From: Candidatus Methylomirabilota bacterium
GTDB lineage: Bacteria > Methylomirabilota > Methylomirabilia > Rokubacteriales > CSP1-6
NCBI GenBank assembly: GCA_036001065.1
Contig: DASYUQ010000149.1
Location: 1 to 38,785, forward strand
Length of the DNA stretch: 38,785 nucleotides
Direction of reading: 5' to 3'
Under the pieces are notes generated by a model. It was given only the letters and a program-made list of their open reading frames with translations. It ran no database searches and was not told where the DNA came from. A program made the translations under genes and the position numbers. This document shows, one piece after another, positions 1 to 26,696 of the stretch. Position 1 is the first letter of the stretch; the number at the start of each line of letters is the position of its first letter.

Positions 1-58
1 TTCGATTTGCTGGCGGCTCGCTCGCCGAGCCCGGCGCTCGAACGGCGACGACGGCTCG
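1..58. repeat. Edge copy of hairpin-rich intergenic repeat
   Basis: The first ~58 bases resemble the right half of the repeat at 24776-24815. Both begin TTCGA, carry a GC-rich stem (GGC..GCC) and then read GGCGCTCGAACGGCG. The left half would lie outside the window. Bases 59-133 hold no recognisable complete gene. A short open frame ends with TAG at 129-131, just before nuoH, but it runs through the repeat, so I do not call it a gene end. Confidence 0.5.
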
Positions 59-2482: not shown

Positions 2483-4309
2483 GTGAGCGCGACCGATCAC
2501 GCCCTGCACGTCCTGCTGCTTCCGTTCGCCGCCTTCGCGATCCTCGCCGTCGTCCCCTGGCTCCGGCGGAAGGGCCGGGCGGCCGGCTGGCTATCCATCA
2601 TCGCGGTGGCGGGCGCTCTCTACCGCGCGCTCACGGTCTGGGCCGGCGGCGGGCGGGGCGAGGCGACGTGGGCGTGGATCTCCGCCGACGGCGGACCGAT
2701 CGCGACGGTCGGCGTCCTGGTGGACGAGCTGAGCGCGGCCATGCTCGTCCTGGTGACGCTGGTCTCGCTGCTGGTGCAGATCTACTCGCTCTCGTACCTC
2801 GACCAGGAGACGCCGCCGGCGCTGGGGCGCTACTACACCTACCAATCGCTCTTCGCCTTCTCGATGCTGGGCCTCGTGCTCTCGCCGTCATTCCTCCAGA
2901 TGTTCATCTTCTGGGAACTGGTCGGGCTCTGCTCCTATCTGCTCATCGGCTACTGGTACGACCGGCCGTCGGCAGCGCGCGCCGCCGTGAAGGCCTTCTG
3001 GATCACCAAGCTGGGCGACGTCGGTTTCATCGTCGGTATCGTCATGCTGTGGGCGTCGACGGGGACTTTCGAGTTCGGCGCGCTCTTCCGGATGGCGGCG
3101 GAGCGCACGCTGCCGCTGGCCGGCCTCGGGCTGATCATGGTCCTGATCTACCTGGGCGCGGTGGGGAAGTCGGCGCAGTTCCCGCTCCACGTCTGGCTGC
3201 CCGACGCTATGGAAGGCCCCACGCCCGTGTCGGCCCTCATCCACGCCGCCACGATGGTGACTGCCGGCGTCTTCATGGTGACCCGCGCGATGCCGTTGTT
3301 CCGGCTGGTGCCCGACGTTCTGGCCCTCATCGGCTGGGTCGGCGCGTTCACGGCGCTGCTGGCCGCCACCATGGCCTGCGTGGAGGGTGACATCAAGCGC
3401 GTGCTCGCCTACTCCACGGTCTCCCAGCTGGGCTACATGATGGCCGCCGCCGGCGCGGGAGCCGCCGACGCCGGCTTCTTCCACCTGCTCACCCACGGGG
3501 TCTTCAAGGCGCTGCTCTTCCTCGCCGCCGGGGCCGTCATCCACGCCGTCGGCACCGGCGACATCTTCCGCATGGGCGGGCTCTTCCGTGCGCTCCCACA
3601 GGCGGGCGTGGTCTTCATCGTGGGCACGCTGGCGTTGGCGGGCGTGTGGCCCTTGGCCGGCTTCTTCTCGAAGGAGGCGGTCCTCGGCGGCGTATGGGAG
3701 GGGCGGATGACCGGCCCCTTCCTCATGCTGGCGCTGACGGCCTTCCTCACCGCGTTCTACATGTTCCGCGTCATCTTCATCGCGTTCTTCGGCCGCGCGC
3801 ACGCCGAGGCTCACGCCCACGACGCGCCGCTCCTGATGGCGGTGCCGCTGTGGGTGCTGGCCGTGCTGACGGTGGTGATCGGGTTGCGCTTCGTCGTGGC
3901 CGGGGCGGGGGAGCACCACGGGCCCGGGTGGCTGGCGCCACTCTCGCTCGGGCTGGCGCTCGCCGGCTTCCTGCTGGCCGCGGCGCTGTATCAGCGGCGG
4001 CTTGTCGAGCCGGCGCGCCTGGCCGCGGTCTTCCCCCTGAACGTGCTCGACGTCATGGCCCGGCACCGCTACGGCGTCGACGCCCTCTACGCGTTACTCT
4101 ATCGCGCATTCATCCTGGGCTTCTCGCGCCTGGTGGGGTGGATCGACCGCTACCTCGTGGACGGGCTCGTCAACTTCGGGAGCGCCGGGACCCTGCGCGC
4201 CGGCGACCTCCTCCGGCGCATCCAGAGCGGGCGGGCCCAGGACTACGTGTACGGCGTCGCCTTCGGAGTGCTGGTGCTCTTCGTCGTGGCCCAGTGGGTG
4301 CGGCGATGA
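2483..4309 (+). CDS. nuoL: NADH-quinone oxidoreductase subunit L (antiporter-like)
   Basis: The 608-residue distal antiporter-like proton-pumping subunit is close to the usual length of about 610. Conserved features include FIFWELVGLCSYLLIGYW with the functional glutamate, KAFWITKLGDVGF with the lysine partner, HVWLPDAMEGPTPVSALIHAATMV, and the discontinuous-helix region with FFSKEAVL. The C-terminal part should form the long lateral helix and final membrane anchor. The start is GTG at 2483, four bases after the nuoK stop, and the end overlaps nuoM as ATGA. Confidence 0.95.
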   Translation: MSATDHALHVLLLPFAAFAILAVVPWLRRKGRAAGWLSIIAVAGALYRALTVWAGGGRGEATWAWISADGGPIATVGVLVDELSAAMLVLVTLVSLLVQIYSLSYLDQETPPALGRYYTYQSLFAFSMLGLVLSPSFLQMFIFWELVGLCSYLLIGYWYDRPSAARAAVKAFWITKLGDVGFIVGIVMLWASTGTFEFGALFRMAAERTLPLAGLGLIMVLIYLGAVGKSAQFPLHVWLPDAMEGPTPVSALIHAATMVTAGVFMVTRAMPLFRLVPDVLALIGWVGAFTALLAATMACVEGDIKRVLAYSTVSQLGYMMAAAGAGAADAGFFHLLTHGVFKALLFLAAGAVIHAVGTGDIFRMGGLFRALPQAGVVFIVGTLALAGVWPLAGFFSKEAVLGGVWEGRMTGPFLMLALTAFLTAFYMFRVIFIAFFGRAHAEAHAHDAPLLMAVPLWVLAVLTVVIGLRFVVAGAGEHHGPGWLAPLSLGLALAGFLLAAALYQRRLVEPARLAAVFPLNVLDVMARHRYGVDALYALLYRAFILGFSRLVGWIDRYLVDGLVNFGSAGTLRAGDLLRRIQSGRAQDYVYGVAFGVLVLFVVAQWVRR

Positions 4310-7241: not shown

Positions 7242-7242
7242 A

Positions 7243-7460
7243 TCGAAGAGGGCCTCGACGGCCCCCTCCGAGCCCCTGCGAGGAATCGGTGGCGCGGGCA
7301 GAGCCGGCGCTCGAAACTCGGAGGGGGGCTCCGCCCCCCTTCCGAGACCTCCCCCATCCGGTTGCGCGGGCGGAGCCCGCGCTCGATCATCCAAAGGGGC
7401 CTCGACGGCCCCCTCCGGGCCCCTCCGAGGAATCGGTGGCGCGGGCAGAGCCGGCGCTCA
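7243..7460. repeat. Three tandem copies of hairpin-rich intergenic repeat
   Basis: The 234-bp gap between nuoN and the hydrolase gene is almost wholly repeat. Copies span about 7243-7314, 7317-7390 and 7391-7460. Each has a GC hairpin in its first half (GGGCC-TCGAC-GGCCC at 7250-7264; GGGGGGC-TCC-GCCCCCC within 7322-7338; GGGGCC-TCGAC-GGCCCC near 7396). Each then has a core of the form GCGCGGGCRGAGCCSGCGCTC. Copies 1 and 3 are nearly identical, including GAGGAATCGGTGGCGCGGGC. There is no T-run after the hairpins, so intrinsic termination is possible but not shown. Confidence 0.85.
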
Positions 7461-7475
7461 ACCAGGAGACGCTCA

Positions 7476-23072: not shown

Positions 23073-24725
23073 GTGAAGATCCGGAGCGCGACGCTCCTCC
23101 TGCTGGGCTGCCTCCTGGCCGGCTGCGGCAGCGAAGTGGGTGGCGCCGTCGACGACGCCGCCGCCGGCCAGCAGAATCTCCCGCCCGCCCCCGGCGACAC
23201 GCTCGTCGAGGCGCTGCTCGGCAACGTCTCCGGCCTGATCCCGAACATCACCAGCGATAGCGCCTCCCACGAGGTGGGCGGCCTCATCTACGCGGGGCTC
23301 GTCACGCGCGACCGCGATCTCAACATCATCGGCGAGATGGCCGAGTCCTGGCAGTTCAGCCGCGATTGCCTGAACCTGACGTTCAAGCTCCGCCCGAACG
23401 TCAAATGGCACGACGGTCACCAGTTCACCGCCGCCGACGTCGTCTTCACCTATCAGACGATGATCCATCCCAAGACGCCGACGGGGTACCGCGAGGACTT
23501 CCGCGCCGTCGAGCGCATCGAGGCGGTGGACCCCCACAGCGTACGCATCACGTACAAGAGGGTGTACGCCAAGGCGCTGCAGAGCTGGGGGATCTGGATA
23601 CTGCCGAAGCACCTGCTCGAGCGGTACGTGCTGGAGGGACGGCTGCGCGATGCGCCGCAGAACTGGCACGGCCCGGTCGGCACGGGGCCGTATCGCTTCA
23701 AGGAGATGCGGTCGGGCGAGAAGATCGTGCTGGTCGCCAACCCGGACTTCTACGAGGAGGGCCGGCCCTACATCTCGCGGATCGTCTACCGCGTCATCCC
23801 GAGCCAGGCGACGATCTTCCTCGAGCTGAAGGCCAAAGGGGTCGACAGCGCCAACCTCACCGCACTCCAGTACAAGCGGCAAACGGAGTACCCGGCGTTC
23901 CAGAAGGCCTACTGGAAGTTCCGTTATCCCAGCAGTGGCTACACCTACCTCGGCTTCAACCTGAAGGACCCGCGCTTCGCCGACAAGCGCGTGCGACAGG
24001 CGTTCACCCACGCCATCAACAAGCGGGAGCTGATCGACGGCGTGCTGCTGGGGCTGGGCCGCGAAGCGACCGGACCGTACAAGCCTGGCACCTGGGTCTA
24101 CAACCCGAACGTGAAGACGTACCCGTACGACATGGGGCAGGCCCGCCGACTGCTGGCCGAGGCCGGCTGGAAGGAGAAGAACGCCGACGGGTTGCTCGTC
24201 AAGGACGGCCAGCCCTTCACGTTCGTGCTCCTCACCAACCAGGGCAACGACGAGCGGAAGAAGGTGGCCGAGATCATCCAGGCCTCGCTCCAGGAGCTGG
24301 GGGTGGGCGTCGAGATCCGGGTTCTGGAGTGGGCGTCTTTCATCAAGGAGTACGTCAAGAAGCGGCGGTTCGATGCCATCGTTCTGGGATGGGGGATCGG
24401 GCTCGATCCCGACCAGTACGAGATCTGGCACTCGTCCAAGACGGGCCCCGACGACCTCAACCACGTCTCGTACGCCAACCCCGAGGTCGATGAGCTGCTG
24501 GAGCGCGGGCGCTCGTCCTGCGTCGACGCCGAGCGGAAGAAGCATTACGATCGGCTGCAAACGATCCTGGCCGAGGAGCAGCCAATCGTGTTCCTCTATT
24601 TCCGCGACAACCTGCCGGCGGTCTCGCGCCGCGTGCGCGGCATCATCGAGTCGCCGAACGGTATCCGGTTCAACTTCACCGACTGGTACGTTCCGCAGAG
24701 CCTCCAGCGCTACACCGCCGGATAA
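23073..24725 (+). CDS. Family 5 (peptide/oligopeptide-type) ABC transporter substrate-binding lipoprotein
   Basis: This 550-residue binding protein starts at GTG 23073, immediately after the secG stop. It has a lipoprotein signal (LLLLGCLLAGCGSE) with the lipobox cysteine near residue 18. Family-5 segments include LTFKLRPNVKWHDGHQFTAADVVFTYQTM, GPVGTGPYRF and RVRQAFTHAINKRELIDGVLLG. It would be tethered outside the cytoplasmic membrane and deliver peptides, nickel or similar ligands to the permeases downstream. The ligand cannot be told. A 113-base gap holding a repeat separates it from the permease genes. Confidence 0.93.
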   Translation: MKIRSATLLLLGCLLAGCGSEVGGAVDDAAAGQQNLPPAPGDTLVEALLGNVSGLIPNITSDSASHEVGGLIYAGLVTRDRDLNIIGEMAESWQFSRDCLNLTFKLRPNVKWHDGHQFTAADVVFTYQTMIHPKTPTGYREDFRAVERIEAVDPHSVRITYKRVYAKALQSWGIWILPKHLLERYVLEGRLRDAPQNWHGPVGTGPYRFKEMRSGEKIVLVANPDFYEEGRPYISRIVYRVIPSQATIFLELKAKGVDSANLTALQYKRQTEYPAFQKAYWKFRYPSSGYTYLGFNLKDPRFADKRVRQAFTHAINKRELIDGVLLGLGREATGPYKPGTWVYNPNVKTYPYDMGQARRLLAEAGWKEKNADGLLVKDGQPFTFVLLTNQGNDERKKVAEIIQASLQELGVGVEIRVLEWASFIKEYVKKRRFDAIVLGWGIGLDPDQYEIWHSSKTGPDDLNHVSYANPEVDELLERGRSSCVDAERKKHYDRLQTILAEEQPIVFLYFRDNLPAVSRRVRGIIESPNGIRFNFTDWYVPQSLQRYTAG

Positions 24726-24827
24726 ATATCGGAGGGGGCGGACGTTACGGCCCCCTCCGAGGCCGCCCCCAGGATTCGAATGCGCCGGCAAAGCCGGCGC
24801 TCGAACGGCGTCGGCGGCCTCCGATAT
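24726..24827. repeat. Intergenic repeat with terminal inverted repeats, between ABC genes
   Basis: A 102-bp element is bounded by perfect 10-bp inverted repeats: ATATCGGAGG at 24726-24735 and CCTCCGATAT at 24818-24827. Inside are a GGGGGC...GCCCCC-type hairpin and the core GCGCCGGCAAAGCCGGCGC (24782-24800), followed by TCGAACGGCG as in the window-start copy. Its right end supplies a TATAAT (24825-24830) eight bases before the permease ATG. No good -35 is seen at the right distance. Confidence 0.82.
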
Positions 24828-24838
24828 AATGCCCCACC

Positions 24839-25831
24839 ATGCTCTGGTACGCGCTGCGACGCCTCGTGCTGGCCGTTCCCCTCCTCATCGGGATCACCTT
24901 CGTGTCCTTCCTGGTCATCCACCTGGCGCCGGGCGAGCCGGTGGAGTTCCAGATGGGCGAGCTGAGCCCCGAATCGACCGCCCAGGCCAAGCAGATGCTC
25001 CGCGAGCTGTACGGGCTCGACAAGCCGCTGCCCGTCCAGTACTGGAACTGGCTCATCCGGATTGCGCGCCTCGATTTCGGCCGCTCGTTCATGCCCGACG
25101 GCCGGCCGGTGCTCGAGAAGATCGGCGAGCGGTTGCCGGTGACGCTGCTCCTCAACGTGGCCGAGATGGCGATCATCCTGGCCATCGCGGTGCCGATCGG
25201 CGTTTTCAGCGCCACGCGCCAGTACTCGCTCTTCGACAAGGTGACGACGATCTTCGTCTTCGTGGGCTTCGCCACGCCGGACTTCTGGCTGGCCCTGCTG
25301 CTGATGATCCTCTTCGGCATCCAGCTCGGGTGGTTGCCGATCTCCGGCCTCCGGGACATCAACTGGGAGTACCTGCCGTTCTGGCGCCAGCAGTGGGATT
25401 TCCTGAGCCACCTCATCCTGCCCATCGTCGTGGCCACCTTCGGCGGGCTGGCCGGGTTCTCGCGCTACATGCGCCAGAGCATGCTGGAGGTGATCCGGCA
25501 GGAGTACATCCAGTCGGCGCGGGCCAAAGGGCTGGCCGAGCGCGTCGTCATCGGCAAGCACGCCCTCCGCAACGCCATGCTGCCGATCGTGACCATCCTG
25601 GGGCTCTCGCTGCCCGGCCTCATCGGCGGCAGCGTCATCGTGGAATGGACGTTCGCCATTCCCGGCATGGGCCAGCTCATGGTGCAGTCCGTCTTCCAGC
25701 GCGACTACCCGGTCATCATGGGCAACCTCGTGATCGTCTCCACGCTCACCCTCGTCGCCAATCTCGTAGCCGACCTCGGCTACGGGCTGATCGACCCCCG
25801 CATCCGCCTGGCCGGCCGCCGCGGGCGCTGA
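24839..25831 (+). CDS. ABC transporter permease, DppB/OppB type
   Basis: The 330-residue inner-membrane permease begins with the typical [29 protein letters not shown]. Six membrane segments follow. The EAA loop that contacts the ATPase is seen in [35 protein letters not shown]. It pairs with the next gene and with the binding lipoprotein upstream. The cognate ATPase genes are not in the window. Confidence 0.93.
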
Positions 25832-25835
25832 CCAC

Positions 25836-26696
25836 GTGAAGGGCTTCTGGCGGGCGTTCGCGAAGAACCGGCTGGCCATCGTCGGGGGCGCCGTCGTCCT
25901 CTGCCTGGCGGCGCTGGCGGTCCTGGCTCCGCTGCTGGCGCCCTGGGATCCGCACCGGCCCGACGTGCGGACGATCCTCGACCCGCCGTCGCGGACGCAC
26001 CTGCTGGGCACCGATCAGCTCGGGCGCGACGTCCTCTCGCGGATGCTCTACGGCGCCCGCGTGTCGCTGGCGGTGGGGTTCGTCTCGGTCGGGATCGCCA
26101 CGGCGATCGGGATCATGCTGGGCTCGGTGGCCGGCTACAACGGCGGACTCGTCGACGCGGCCGTCATGCGGCTCGTCGACCTCATGCTGGTCTTCCCCCG
26201 CTTCTTCCTGCTCCTGGCGGTCCTGGCCTTTCTCCGGCCCTCGATCTGGACGATCATGGTCGTGATCGGGCTCACGGGTTGGATGAGCGTGACGCGGCTG
26301 GTGCGGGCCGAGTTCCTGAGCCTCAAGGAGCGGGAGTTCGTGATCTGGTCGCAGTCGGTCGGGGCCAGCGGGTTCCGGGTGATCTGGCGTCACATCCTGC
26401 CCAACGCGATGGCGCCGGTGCTGGTGGCGATGACCCTCGGCATTCCCGCCGCCATCCTCACCGAGTCGGGCCTCTCCTTCCTGGGGCTCGGGGTGCAGCC
26501 TCCCTTCGCCACCTGGGGCAATATCCTCAACGAGGGCAAGGACGCGATCGAGATCGCCTGGTGGCTATCGGTCTACCCGGGACTGGCCATTCTGGTGACC
26601 GTGCTCTCCTACAACCTGCTCGGCGAGGGAATCCGCGACGCGCTCGACCCGCGGCTGCGCCAAGCCGTGGGCCGGTTTGTTGCGCGCGCGCGTTGA
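25836..26696 (+). CDS. ABC transporter permease, DppC/OppC type
   Basis: The 286-residue permease starts at GTG 25836. It has the N-terminal [56 protein letters not shown], and the EAA loop [31 protein letters not shown]. The C-terminal [17 protein letters not shown] is diagnostic. It is the last gene before tRNA-Leu, whose -35 box lies in its 3' end. The usual dppD/dppF ATPases are missing after it, perhaps encoded elsewhere or displaced. Confidence 0.93.

What the first reader, a model, noticed from the sequence alone, without database searches (positions are those of the whole stretch)
24726..24827. Mobile-looking hairpin repeat with 10-bp terminal inverted repeats next to a permease gene
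The copy has perfect ends (ATATCGGAGG / CCTCCGATAT). Related copies occur at the window start and three times after nuoN. Its right end creates a TATAAT eight bases from the permease start and splits the binding-protein gene from its permeases. It may be a non-autonomous or REP-like family spread through the genome.
Basis: seen in the sequence. Interest (0 to 1): 0.5.

Follow-up and report, generated by a model that had tools for sequence, protein, structure and literature searches.

The report
Rokubacteria two-hairpin gene-end repeat
A short DNA repeat that folds into two hairpins occurs about 200 times, mostly just behind genes, in the genome of an uncultured soil bacterium and recurs across its order, where most genomes lack the enzyme that usually moves such repeats.

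Summary
The unit is ~75 bp (window 24729-24805): hairpin SL1, C-rich spacer, hairpin SL2. The right arm of the claimed inverted repeat (24818-24827) is permease leader: 1 of 181 copies has such ends (this one), and a TATAAT-like box stands at -14/-15 in 16 of 48 relatives' loci lacking the repeat. So no 10-bp TIRs, and the box is older. The genome-wide guess was right: 195 SL2 matches here (2 in a reversed control), matches in all 60 genomes of the order, single matches in 9 of 88 outside. In genus-mate G001 no element lies in a divergent gap (0 of 72 element-bearing gaps; 121 of 469 others), and SL1 facing a stop codon lies within 8 nt of it in 33 of 47 cases. Between the two genomes (95% identical here) arrays grow, shrink and swap loops; of four clean gains or losses two carry 37-43 bp host duplications. 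Six of the seven copy-richest genomes lack Y1 (RAYT-type) transposases. Best reading: a new, untagged, apparently RAYT-independent variant of REP-like repeats, mobile by an unknown route, tolerated or used as a 3'-end RNA hairpin. Function is inferred.

The parts
23073..24725 (+). ABC-transporter solute-binding protein gene (SBP_bac_5), stop TAA at 24723-24725
   Evidence: ORF, Pfam PF00496 E 3e-95
24726..24728 (+). 3-nt junction (ATA) between the stop codon and SL1; at four clean gain/loss sites host homology also ends 3-4 nt before SL1
24729..24760 (+). SL1 hairpin, TCGGAGGGGG / 12-nt loop / CCCCCTCCGA
24761..24781 (+). C-rich spacer between hairpins (15-22 nt in 173 of 184 elements)
24782..24805 (+). 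SL2 hairpin GCGCCGGC-AAA-GCCGGCGC plus TCGAA; with TTCGA at 24775-24779 the stem is longer. The fifth stem pair covaries (C-G 121, G-C 57, other 6 of 184 elements)
24839..25831 (+). ABC permease gene (BPD_transp_1)
25836..26696 (+). second ABC permease gene (BPD_transp_1 / OppC_N)
7243..7315 (+). family copy 1 behind nuoN (SL1+SL2)
7318..7387 (+). family copy 2 behind nuoN (loop type GCTCCG)
7390..7461 (+). family copy 3 behind nuoN, more diverged; 7389-7459 is 93% identical to 7242-7312, so probably a tandem duplicate of copy 1; the genus-mate has only an SL1-like remnant at this site
1..47 (+). degenerate SL2-like remnant at the contig end
   Evidence: read by eye

Best explanation
The feature is one copy of an order-specific family of about 75-bp, two-hairpin (SL1-spacer-SL2) intergenic repeats of Rokubacteria. 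SHOWN: unit structure, a covarying stem pair, about 200 copies, near-restriction to the order, placement behind genes, presence at this junction only in the window and in its genus-mate (1 of the 49 other loci read), and turnover of arrays. INFERRED: (a) the copies spread as non-autonomous elements by a route that leaves a sharp boundary 3-4 nt before SL1, a ragged end behind SL2 and, in part of the cases, a 12-43 bp duplication of host DNA; (b) once transcribed, the hairpin pair acts as a 3'-end RNA structure that slows 3'-to-5' exonucleases or attenuates read-through, so that here the binding-protein message would outlast or outnumber the permease message, as REP hairpins do behind E. coli genes. 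It is not a TIR-bounded transposon, and related operons exist without it.
For: Copy number: 195 SL2 matches (at most 1 mismatch) against 2 in the reversed control. All 60 genomes of the order have at least two matches; 5 of 35 same-class and 4 of 53 more distant genomes have a single match each. The stricter SL1-arm+spacer+SL2 pattern is in 45 of 60, with 1 control hit in all. Structure: z -4.7; the SL2 fifth pair is Watson-Crick in 178 of 184 against 102 expected on shuffling. Placement in 1.68 Mb of G001: element-bearing gaps 48 codirectional, 24 convergent, 0 divergent; gaps of at least 75 bp without element 296, 52 and 121 (Fisher p 3.6e-9); SL1 within 8 nt of the facing stop codon in 33 of 47 cases (p 9e-6 against uniform placement per codirectional gap). 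This junction; L064 lies letter for letter in G001 contig C27. Turnover and duplications. Precedent for 3'-end REPs stabilising mRNA: passages of PMC12306157.
Against: No transcript or protein data exist for the functional part. Both orientations occur behind genes in similar numbers (33 against 40 codirectional), so no strand-specific signal is evident. Related operons lack the element, so it may be a passenger kept only where harmless. My simple gene caller put 16 of 127 elements inside genes and one (L025) in a divergent gap of the own genome; 8 of 86 inside genes in G001. In two of the 60 genomes (G032, G049) the SL2 count is no higher than the control (3 and 3), and 15 of 60 lack the stricter pattern. 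Covariation rests mainly on one pair with two states, which could be few events. Direct repeats clearly above background were seen in only 5-7 of 126 elements, two of them (L003, L129) shared by both genomes, and two of the four clean gain/loss sites lack them.
Confidence: 0.6

Rival explanations
1. Pure genomic parasite: the hairpins spread without function, and the gene-end placement only reflects purging from promoters and coding sequence.
For: No divergent gap in the G001 sample is what purging from promoters gives. Similar use of both orientations. Gain, loss and loop swapping between two genomes 95% identical here. Absence from related operons.
Against: SL1 lies within 8 nt of the facing stop codon in 33 of 47 cases, more than uniform insertion into codirectional gaps predicts (38% per gap, 6% per bp); purging alone does not give so tight a distance, though small original gaps or a target preference could. 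One SL2 stem pair is kept by compensatory change (178 of 184), which a DNA-level replication need could also explain.
Confidence: 0.35
2. REP/REPIN family moved by a RAYT (Y1 tyrosine transposase), as in Pseudomonas and Stenotrophomonas.
For: High copy number, palindromes, gene-end location. This genome does hold one Y1_Tnp ORF.
Against: 49 of 60 genomes of the order have no Y1_Tnp; six of the seven genomes with at least 100 SL2 matches have none, and copy number does not differ with Y1 presence (medians 22 and 23, p 0.51). The own Y1 ORF lacks model positions 52-69 and has no SL2 or full element nearby. No GTAG or CGTC tag at the ends.
Confidence: 0.04
3. One reading: a MITE bounded by 10-bp terminal inverted repeats whose right end created the permease promoter.
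For: The two 10-mers are exact complements and the stretch can close on itself.
Against: Only 1 of 181 copies shows this; leaders with the box exist in relatives without the repeat.
Confidence: 0.02
4. The hairpins are ordinary intrinsic terminators reused at many genes.
For: Gene-end location and strong G+C-rich stems.
Against: Of 181 elements none has TTTT in the 12 nt behind SL1 on either strand and one has it in the 12 nt behind SL2. One G001 copy (L164) is followed by a separate stem and T-run of typical intrinsic-terminator form (read by eye). Copies are dispersed repeats with gains or losses between close genomes. The terminator scan tool was not run.
Confidence: 0.08

Closest known systems
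REP / BIME elements (GTAG- and CGTC-tagged superfamilies; Di Nocera et al. 2013, PMC3733652: abstract and the sections on GTAG families, CGTC families and genome distribution read)
   Same: High-copy extragenic palindromes, mostly between unidirectional and convergent genes, close to the 3' end of the upstream gene, with complementary stem changes and clustering
   Different: A fixed ordered pair of two different hairpins (about 75 bp) instead of one 20-40 bp palindrome; no GTAG or CGTC tag; no RAYT found. That paper says CGTC REPs also apparently lack a dedicated transposase, so RAYT absence alone is not new
RAYT-mobilised REPs/REPINs (Nunvar et al. 2010, PMC2817692, abstract read; PMC3116915, search listing only)
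   Same: Non-autonomous short hairpin DNA that multiplies within a genome
   Different: No Y1 transposase in six of the seven copy-richest genomes; some copies are flanked by 12-43 bp direct repeats. That IS200/605-type transposition makes no target duplication is recalled, not from a call
E. coli malE-malF intercistronic REP (recalled, not from a call)
   Same: Hairpin repeat between a binding-protein gene and its permease genes
   Different: No expression data here; sequences were not compared
Bacterial MITEs
   Same: Short, multi-copy, no coding capacity seen
   Different: No terminal inverted repeats bounding the unit; duplications long and variable or absent

Membership tests
REP (repetitive extragenic palindrome) | palindromic, high-copy, mostly intergenic | tested here: met
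   195 SL2 matches against 2 control; 8 of 86 inside called genes in G001, 16 of 127 in the mixed sample
REP (repetitive extragenic palindrome) | 20-40 bp single palindrome with GTAG or CGTC tag at one end | tested here: not met
   184 elements: GTAG in 2 upstream and 3 downstream 8-nt flanks (expected about 0.6 per side), CGTC in 0 and 4 (expected about 9.3 per side); unit 67-103 nt with two hairpins
REP (repetitive extragenic palindrome) | located between codirectional or convergent genes, near 3' ends | tested here: met
   48 co, 24 conv, 0 div gaps in G001; 33 of 47 SL1-facing stops within 8 nt; one divergent case in the own-genome loci
RAYT-mobilised REP/REPIN | cognate Y1 (RAYT) transposase gene flanked by the repeats | tested here: not met
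   49 of 60 genomes without Y1_Tnp; the single own Y1 ORF has no SL2 or full element in the 8.2 kb read. Y1 loci of the ten other genomes were not read
BIME | palindromes in alternating orientation in mosaic clusters | tested here: inconclusive
   tandem and mixed clusters seen (nuoN site, L048, L064) but not counted
MITE | terminal inverted repeats bounding the unit | tested here: not met
   1 of 181 copies has a 10-nt inverted end, there in host leader DNA
MITE | short fixed-length target duplication | tested here: inconclusive
   direct repeats of 12-43 nt in a minority, no long duplication at two of four clean sites; short duplications of a few bases were not tested
Intrinsic terminator | G+C-rich stem followed by a T-run | tested here: not met
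   TTTT within 12 nt behind SL1 in 0 and behind SL2 in 1 of 181 elements, 0 on the other strand of SL1; terminator scan tool not run
Rfam RNA family | match at gathering score | tested here: not met
   no match in the window to any of 4227 families
3'-end mRNA-stabilising hairpin | RNA half-life or 3'-end effect | not testable with these tools
   needs transcript data

The most novel reading that the evidence does not exclude
Two-hairpin repeats of this Rokubacteria order spread by an undescribed route that needs neither a RAYT nor a reverse transcriptase: insertion is fixed to a point 3-4 nt before SL1, ragged behind SL2, aimed at stop codons, and in part of the events duplicates 12-43 bp of the host gene, so that the gene end or start is copied and stays intact.
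Probability: 0.25. Interest if true: 0.6.

Novelty: new variant of a known kind. Interest (0 to 1): 0.42.

Why it matters
[quoted passage not shown] This family gives an order-wide, copy-rich case with gains or losses between two genomes 95% identical at this locus, and with footprints (sharp SL1-side boundary, long host duplications in part of the cases) that a mechanism must explain. It also adds hundreds of candidate 3'-end RNA structures in uncultured soil bacteria, which would bear on operon expression and on reading metatranscriptomes.

Tried and rejected
Rejected: TIR-bounded MITE; element-made promoter; RAYT-driven spread, by the Y1_Tnp proxy; spread by a reverse transcriptase common to all (RVT_1 in 21 of 60 genomes, none in copy-rich G017, G023, G046, though four of the seven genomes with at least 100 matches, G000, G001, G015 and G045, do have one; medians 33 and 22, p 0.60); Rfam family. 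An IS1182-family link (palindrome-targeting transposases) was only considered: a passage of PMC5678879 says some members target palindromes; the transposase was not searched for. Nine 'empty' orthologous sites were flagged; I keep four as clean (L006, L055, L023, L169) and drop five rows after reading: two at L031 (the genus-mate keeps an SL1-like remnant), L297 (gap not clearly homologous), L146 (the counterpart holds a degenerate copy and a MITE) and L171 (counterpart at a contig end). MAFFT misaligned the SL1 loop classes, so stems were counted from parsed arms; no covariance model was built. Loose SL2 matches in six relatives were judged coding sequence by eye. Of the 65 loci I used 49 (L064-L112) and left out 16 (partial or distant). 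Literature: searches (capped listings of the open PMC library) and a find in PMC5712423 showed no description of this family; subscription journals are not covered.

Full report
What the sequence shows. They lie behind the stop codon of an SBP_bac_5 gene (23073-24725) and before the start of an ABC permease gene (24839). The stretch folds strongly as RNA (+ strand, z -4.7) and as DNA (- strand, z -4.6).

It is a genome-wide family, but with other ends. BLAST with the 102-nt stretch against the window's own 4.46-Mb, 239-contig genome gave 42 matches (40 of 268 candidates scored), apart from itself ending at query position 92 or before; the nuoN copies gave 45 (40 of 285 scored). Reading the copies shows one plan: SL1 (TCGGAGGGGG-loop-CCCCCTCCGA), a C-rich spacer, and SL2 (GCGCSGGC-3 nt-GCCSGCGC-TCGAA). 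In 184 elements from two genomes the unit is 67-103 nt (median 73). SL1 loops fall into a few types (CCTCGACGG 35, CGGACGTTACGG 25, GCTTCGCC 19 and others). The fifth SL2 pair is C-G in 121, G-C in 57 and otherwise in 6; it is Watson-Crick in 178 against 102 expected if partners are shuffled. The other pairs hardly vary, so this evidence rests mainly on one pair. The SL2 pattern with at most one mismatch occurs 195 times in this genome and 2 times read backwards.

The right arm is host DNA. Of 181 elements with enough flank, only this copy has its left 10-mer inverted within 40 nt behind SL2. A scan of genome contigs with the permease gave 65 loci; I used L064-L112 (49). The titles show that the organism is a Rokubacterium; the best match, L064, is Candidatus Rokubacteria bacterium 13_1_40CM_69_27 (98% protein identity). 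In the 48 other loci I found no element in the 220 nt upstream (38 nt in L104), setting aside six loose SL2 matches judged coding. In 16 of these 48 a TAnAAT box stands 14-15 nt before the start, as TATAAT does in the window. In L088 the leader reads TGA-cgtcggcggctacgcTACAATagcgcgccATG, and its cgtcggcggc equals window 24809-24818. So the leader and the box most likely predate the insertion, and the 'right end' lies in them.

Order-wide distribution. With the SL2 pattern all 60 genomes of the order (own included; kinship as given by the tool, the name Rokubacteriales from the abstract of PMC8780371 in the listing) have matches, from 2 to 297; in two (G032, G049) the count is no higher than the control. 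Of 35 genomes of the same class but other orders 5 have one match each, and of 53 more distant genomes 4. The SL1-arm+spacer+SL2 pattern is in 45 of 60, with a single control hit.

Turnover. L064 lies letter for letter in genus-mate G001, contig C27. Genes on both sides are 95% identical to the window, yet the array differs: L064 has several SL1 units joined by an ATCCATAGT-like spacer, then SL2. Of 93 own and 88 G001 elements in the DNA held, 29 and 25 had both flanks in the other genome: 32 full copies, 13 with modules only, 9 flagged empty (a shared site can be counted from both sides). After reading I keep four clean gains or losses (L006, L055, L023, L169); in all four the host homology ends 3-4 nt before SL1. 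L023 (37-bp host duplication by my reading; 34 nt found by script) and L169 (43 bp with one mismatch) have the site without the element in the other genome; L006 and L055 show no long duplication. Among 126 elements, five have flanking direct repeats scoring 14 or more, and none of the shuffled pairs does. Loop types differ at otherwise conserved sites (L004, L013). Behind nuoN this genome has three units where G001 has only an SL1-like remnant.

Placement. Genes were called with a simple codon-usage caller that I wrote. In 1.68 Mb of G001, element-bearing gaps are 48 codirectional, 24 convergent and 0 divergent; gaps of at least 75 bp without an element are 296, 52 and 121 (Fisher p 3.6e-9). 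Eight of 86 elements fall inside called genes. In the mixed sample one own-genome element (L025) lies in a divergent gap and 16 of 127 inside genes. SL1 faces a stop codon within 8 nt in 33 of 47 cases; uniform insertion into codirectional gaps predicts 38% per gap or 6% per base. SL2-first elements behind codirectional genes never come that close (0 of 26, median 40 nt), in line with a tail behind SL2. TAG stops are enriched next to SL1 (28 of 48 against 237 of 1030).

No usual mover found. Y1_Tnp (PF01797) is in 11 of 60 genomes. The own ORF lacks model positions 52-69 and stands beside a tnpB-like ORF (by eye) with no SL2 or full element in the 8.2 kb read. SL2 counts do not depend on Y1 (medians 22 and 23) or on reverse transcriptase (33 and 22); of the seven genomes with at least 100 matches only G000 has Y1, while four have a reverse transcriptase. 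No GTAG/CGTC tag, no T-run as a rule, no Rfam match.

How it most likely works. Shown: a dispersed two-hairpin element that comes and goes at given sites and is found mostly behind genes. Inferred: as RNA, the hairpin pair at 24729-24805 forms 3 nt behind the SBP stop and protects or ends part of the upstream message, which would favour the binding protein over its permeases, as REPs do behind E. coli genes (passages of PMC12306157; malE-malF recalled). The main rival is a passenger purged from harmful sites; the present data do not separate the two well. The route of spread is open.

Known or new. It is placed like a REP, but fails the tag and RAYT criteria of the described REP families, so I file it as a new variant of REP-like repeats. 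My searches of the open PMC library (and a find in PMC5712423) showed no description of it.

Noticed in passing
L048 about 1400-1490, L289:113-202, L291:13320-13409, L292:13838-13927 (own genome; none in the window): A true MITE: 90 bp with terminal inverted repeats (CTAGTGCCGTTCCAACT...AGTTGGAACGGCACTAG). 130 copies with exact 15-bp ends in this genome (those listed are near-identical), 0 in the genus-mate and in the 37 other genomes of the order scanned, and one copy each with the same ends in two of 21 same-class genomes of other orders: it looks like a very recent burst. Several copies stand beside hairpin repeats, but those loci were chosen for the repeats.
   Followed up: partly
L064 about 2799-2964 and G001 loci L204, L194, L131: Composite arrays in which extra SL1 units are joined by an ATCCATAGT-like spacer ahead of an SL1-SL2 unit; some SL1 loops carry an additional hairpin.
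   Followed up: no
loci, behind SL2: Recurrent tail types behind SL2 (e.g. ACGGCGAGCAGTGGCCGCAGTGAGCTCGCGCCATTCGCCG..., CGGTGGTTACTCCGACGCGCGCCTAG), so some subfamilies are longer than the 75-bp core.
   Followed up: partly
L192 reverse strand near 3184 (G001, start of a mutL-like gene, named by eye) and L023 (start of the gene downstream): Elements with the first codons of a gene repeated on both sides, so that two copies of the gene start surround the element.
   Followed up: partly
L087 upstream of 3001: A different palindrome (CCATGGGGGGCCTCGAAGGGCCCCCCATG) stands at the same SBP-permease junction in another Rokubacterium, so the junction may accept hairpins repeatedly.
   Followed up: no
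G000:C22:16158-16460 (L061-L063): IS200/IS605-like tnpA ORF of 121 aa whose Y1 domain lacks model positions 52-69 (probably inactive, inferred), next to a tnpB-like ORF named by eye.
   Followed up: partly
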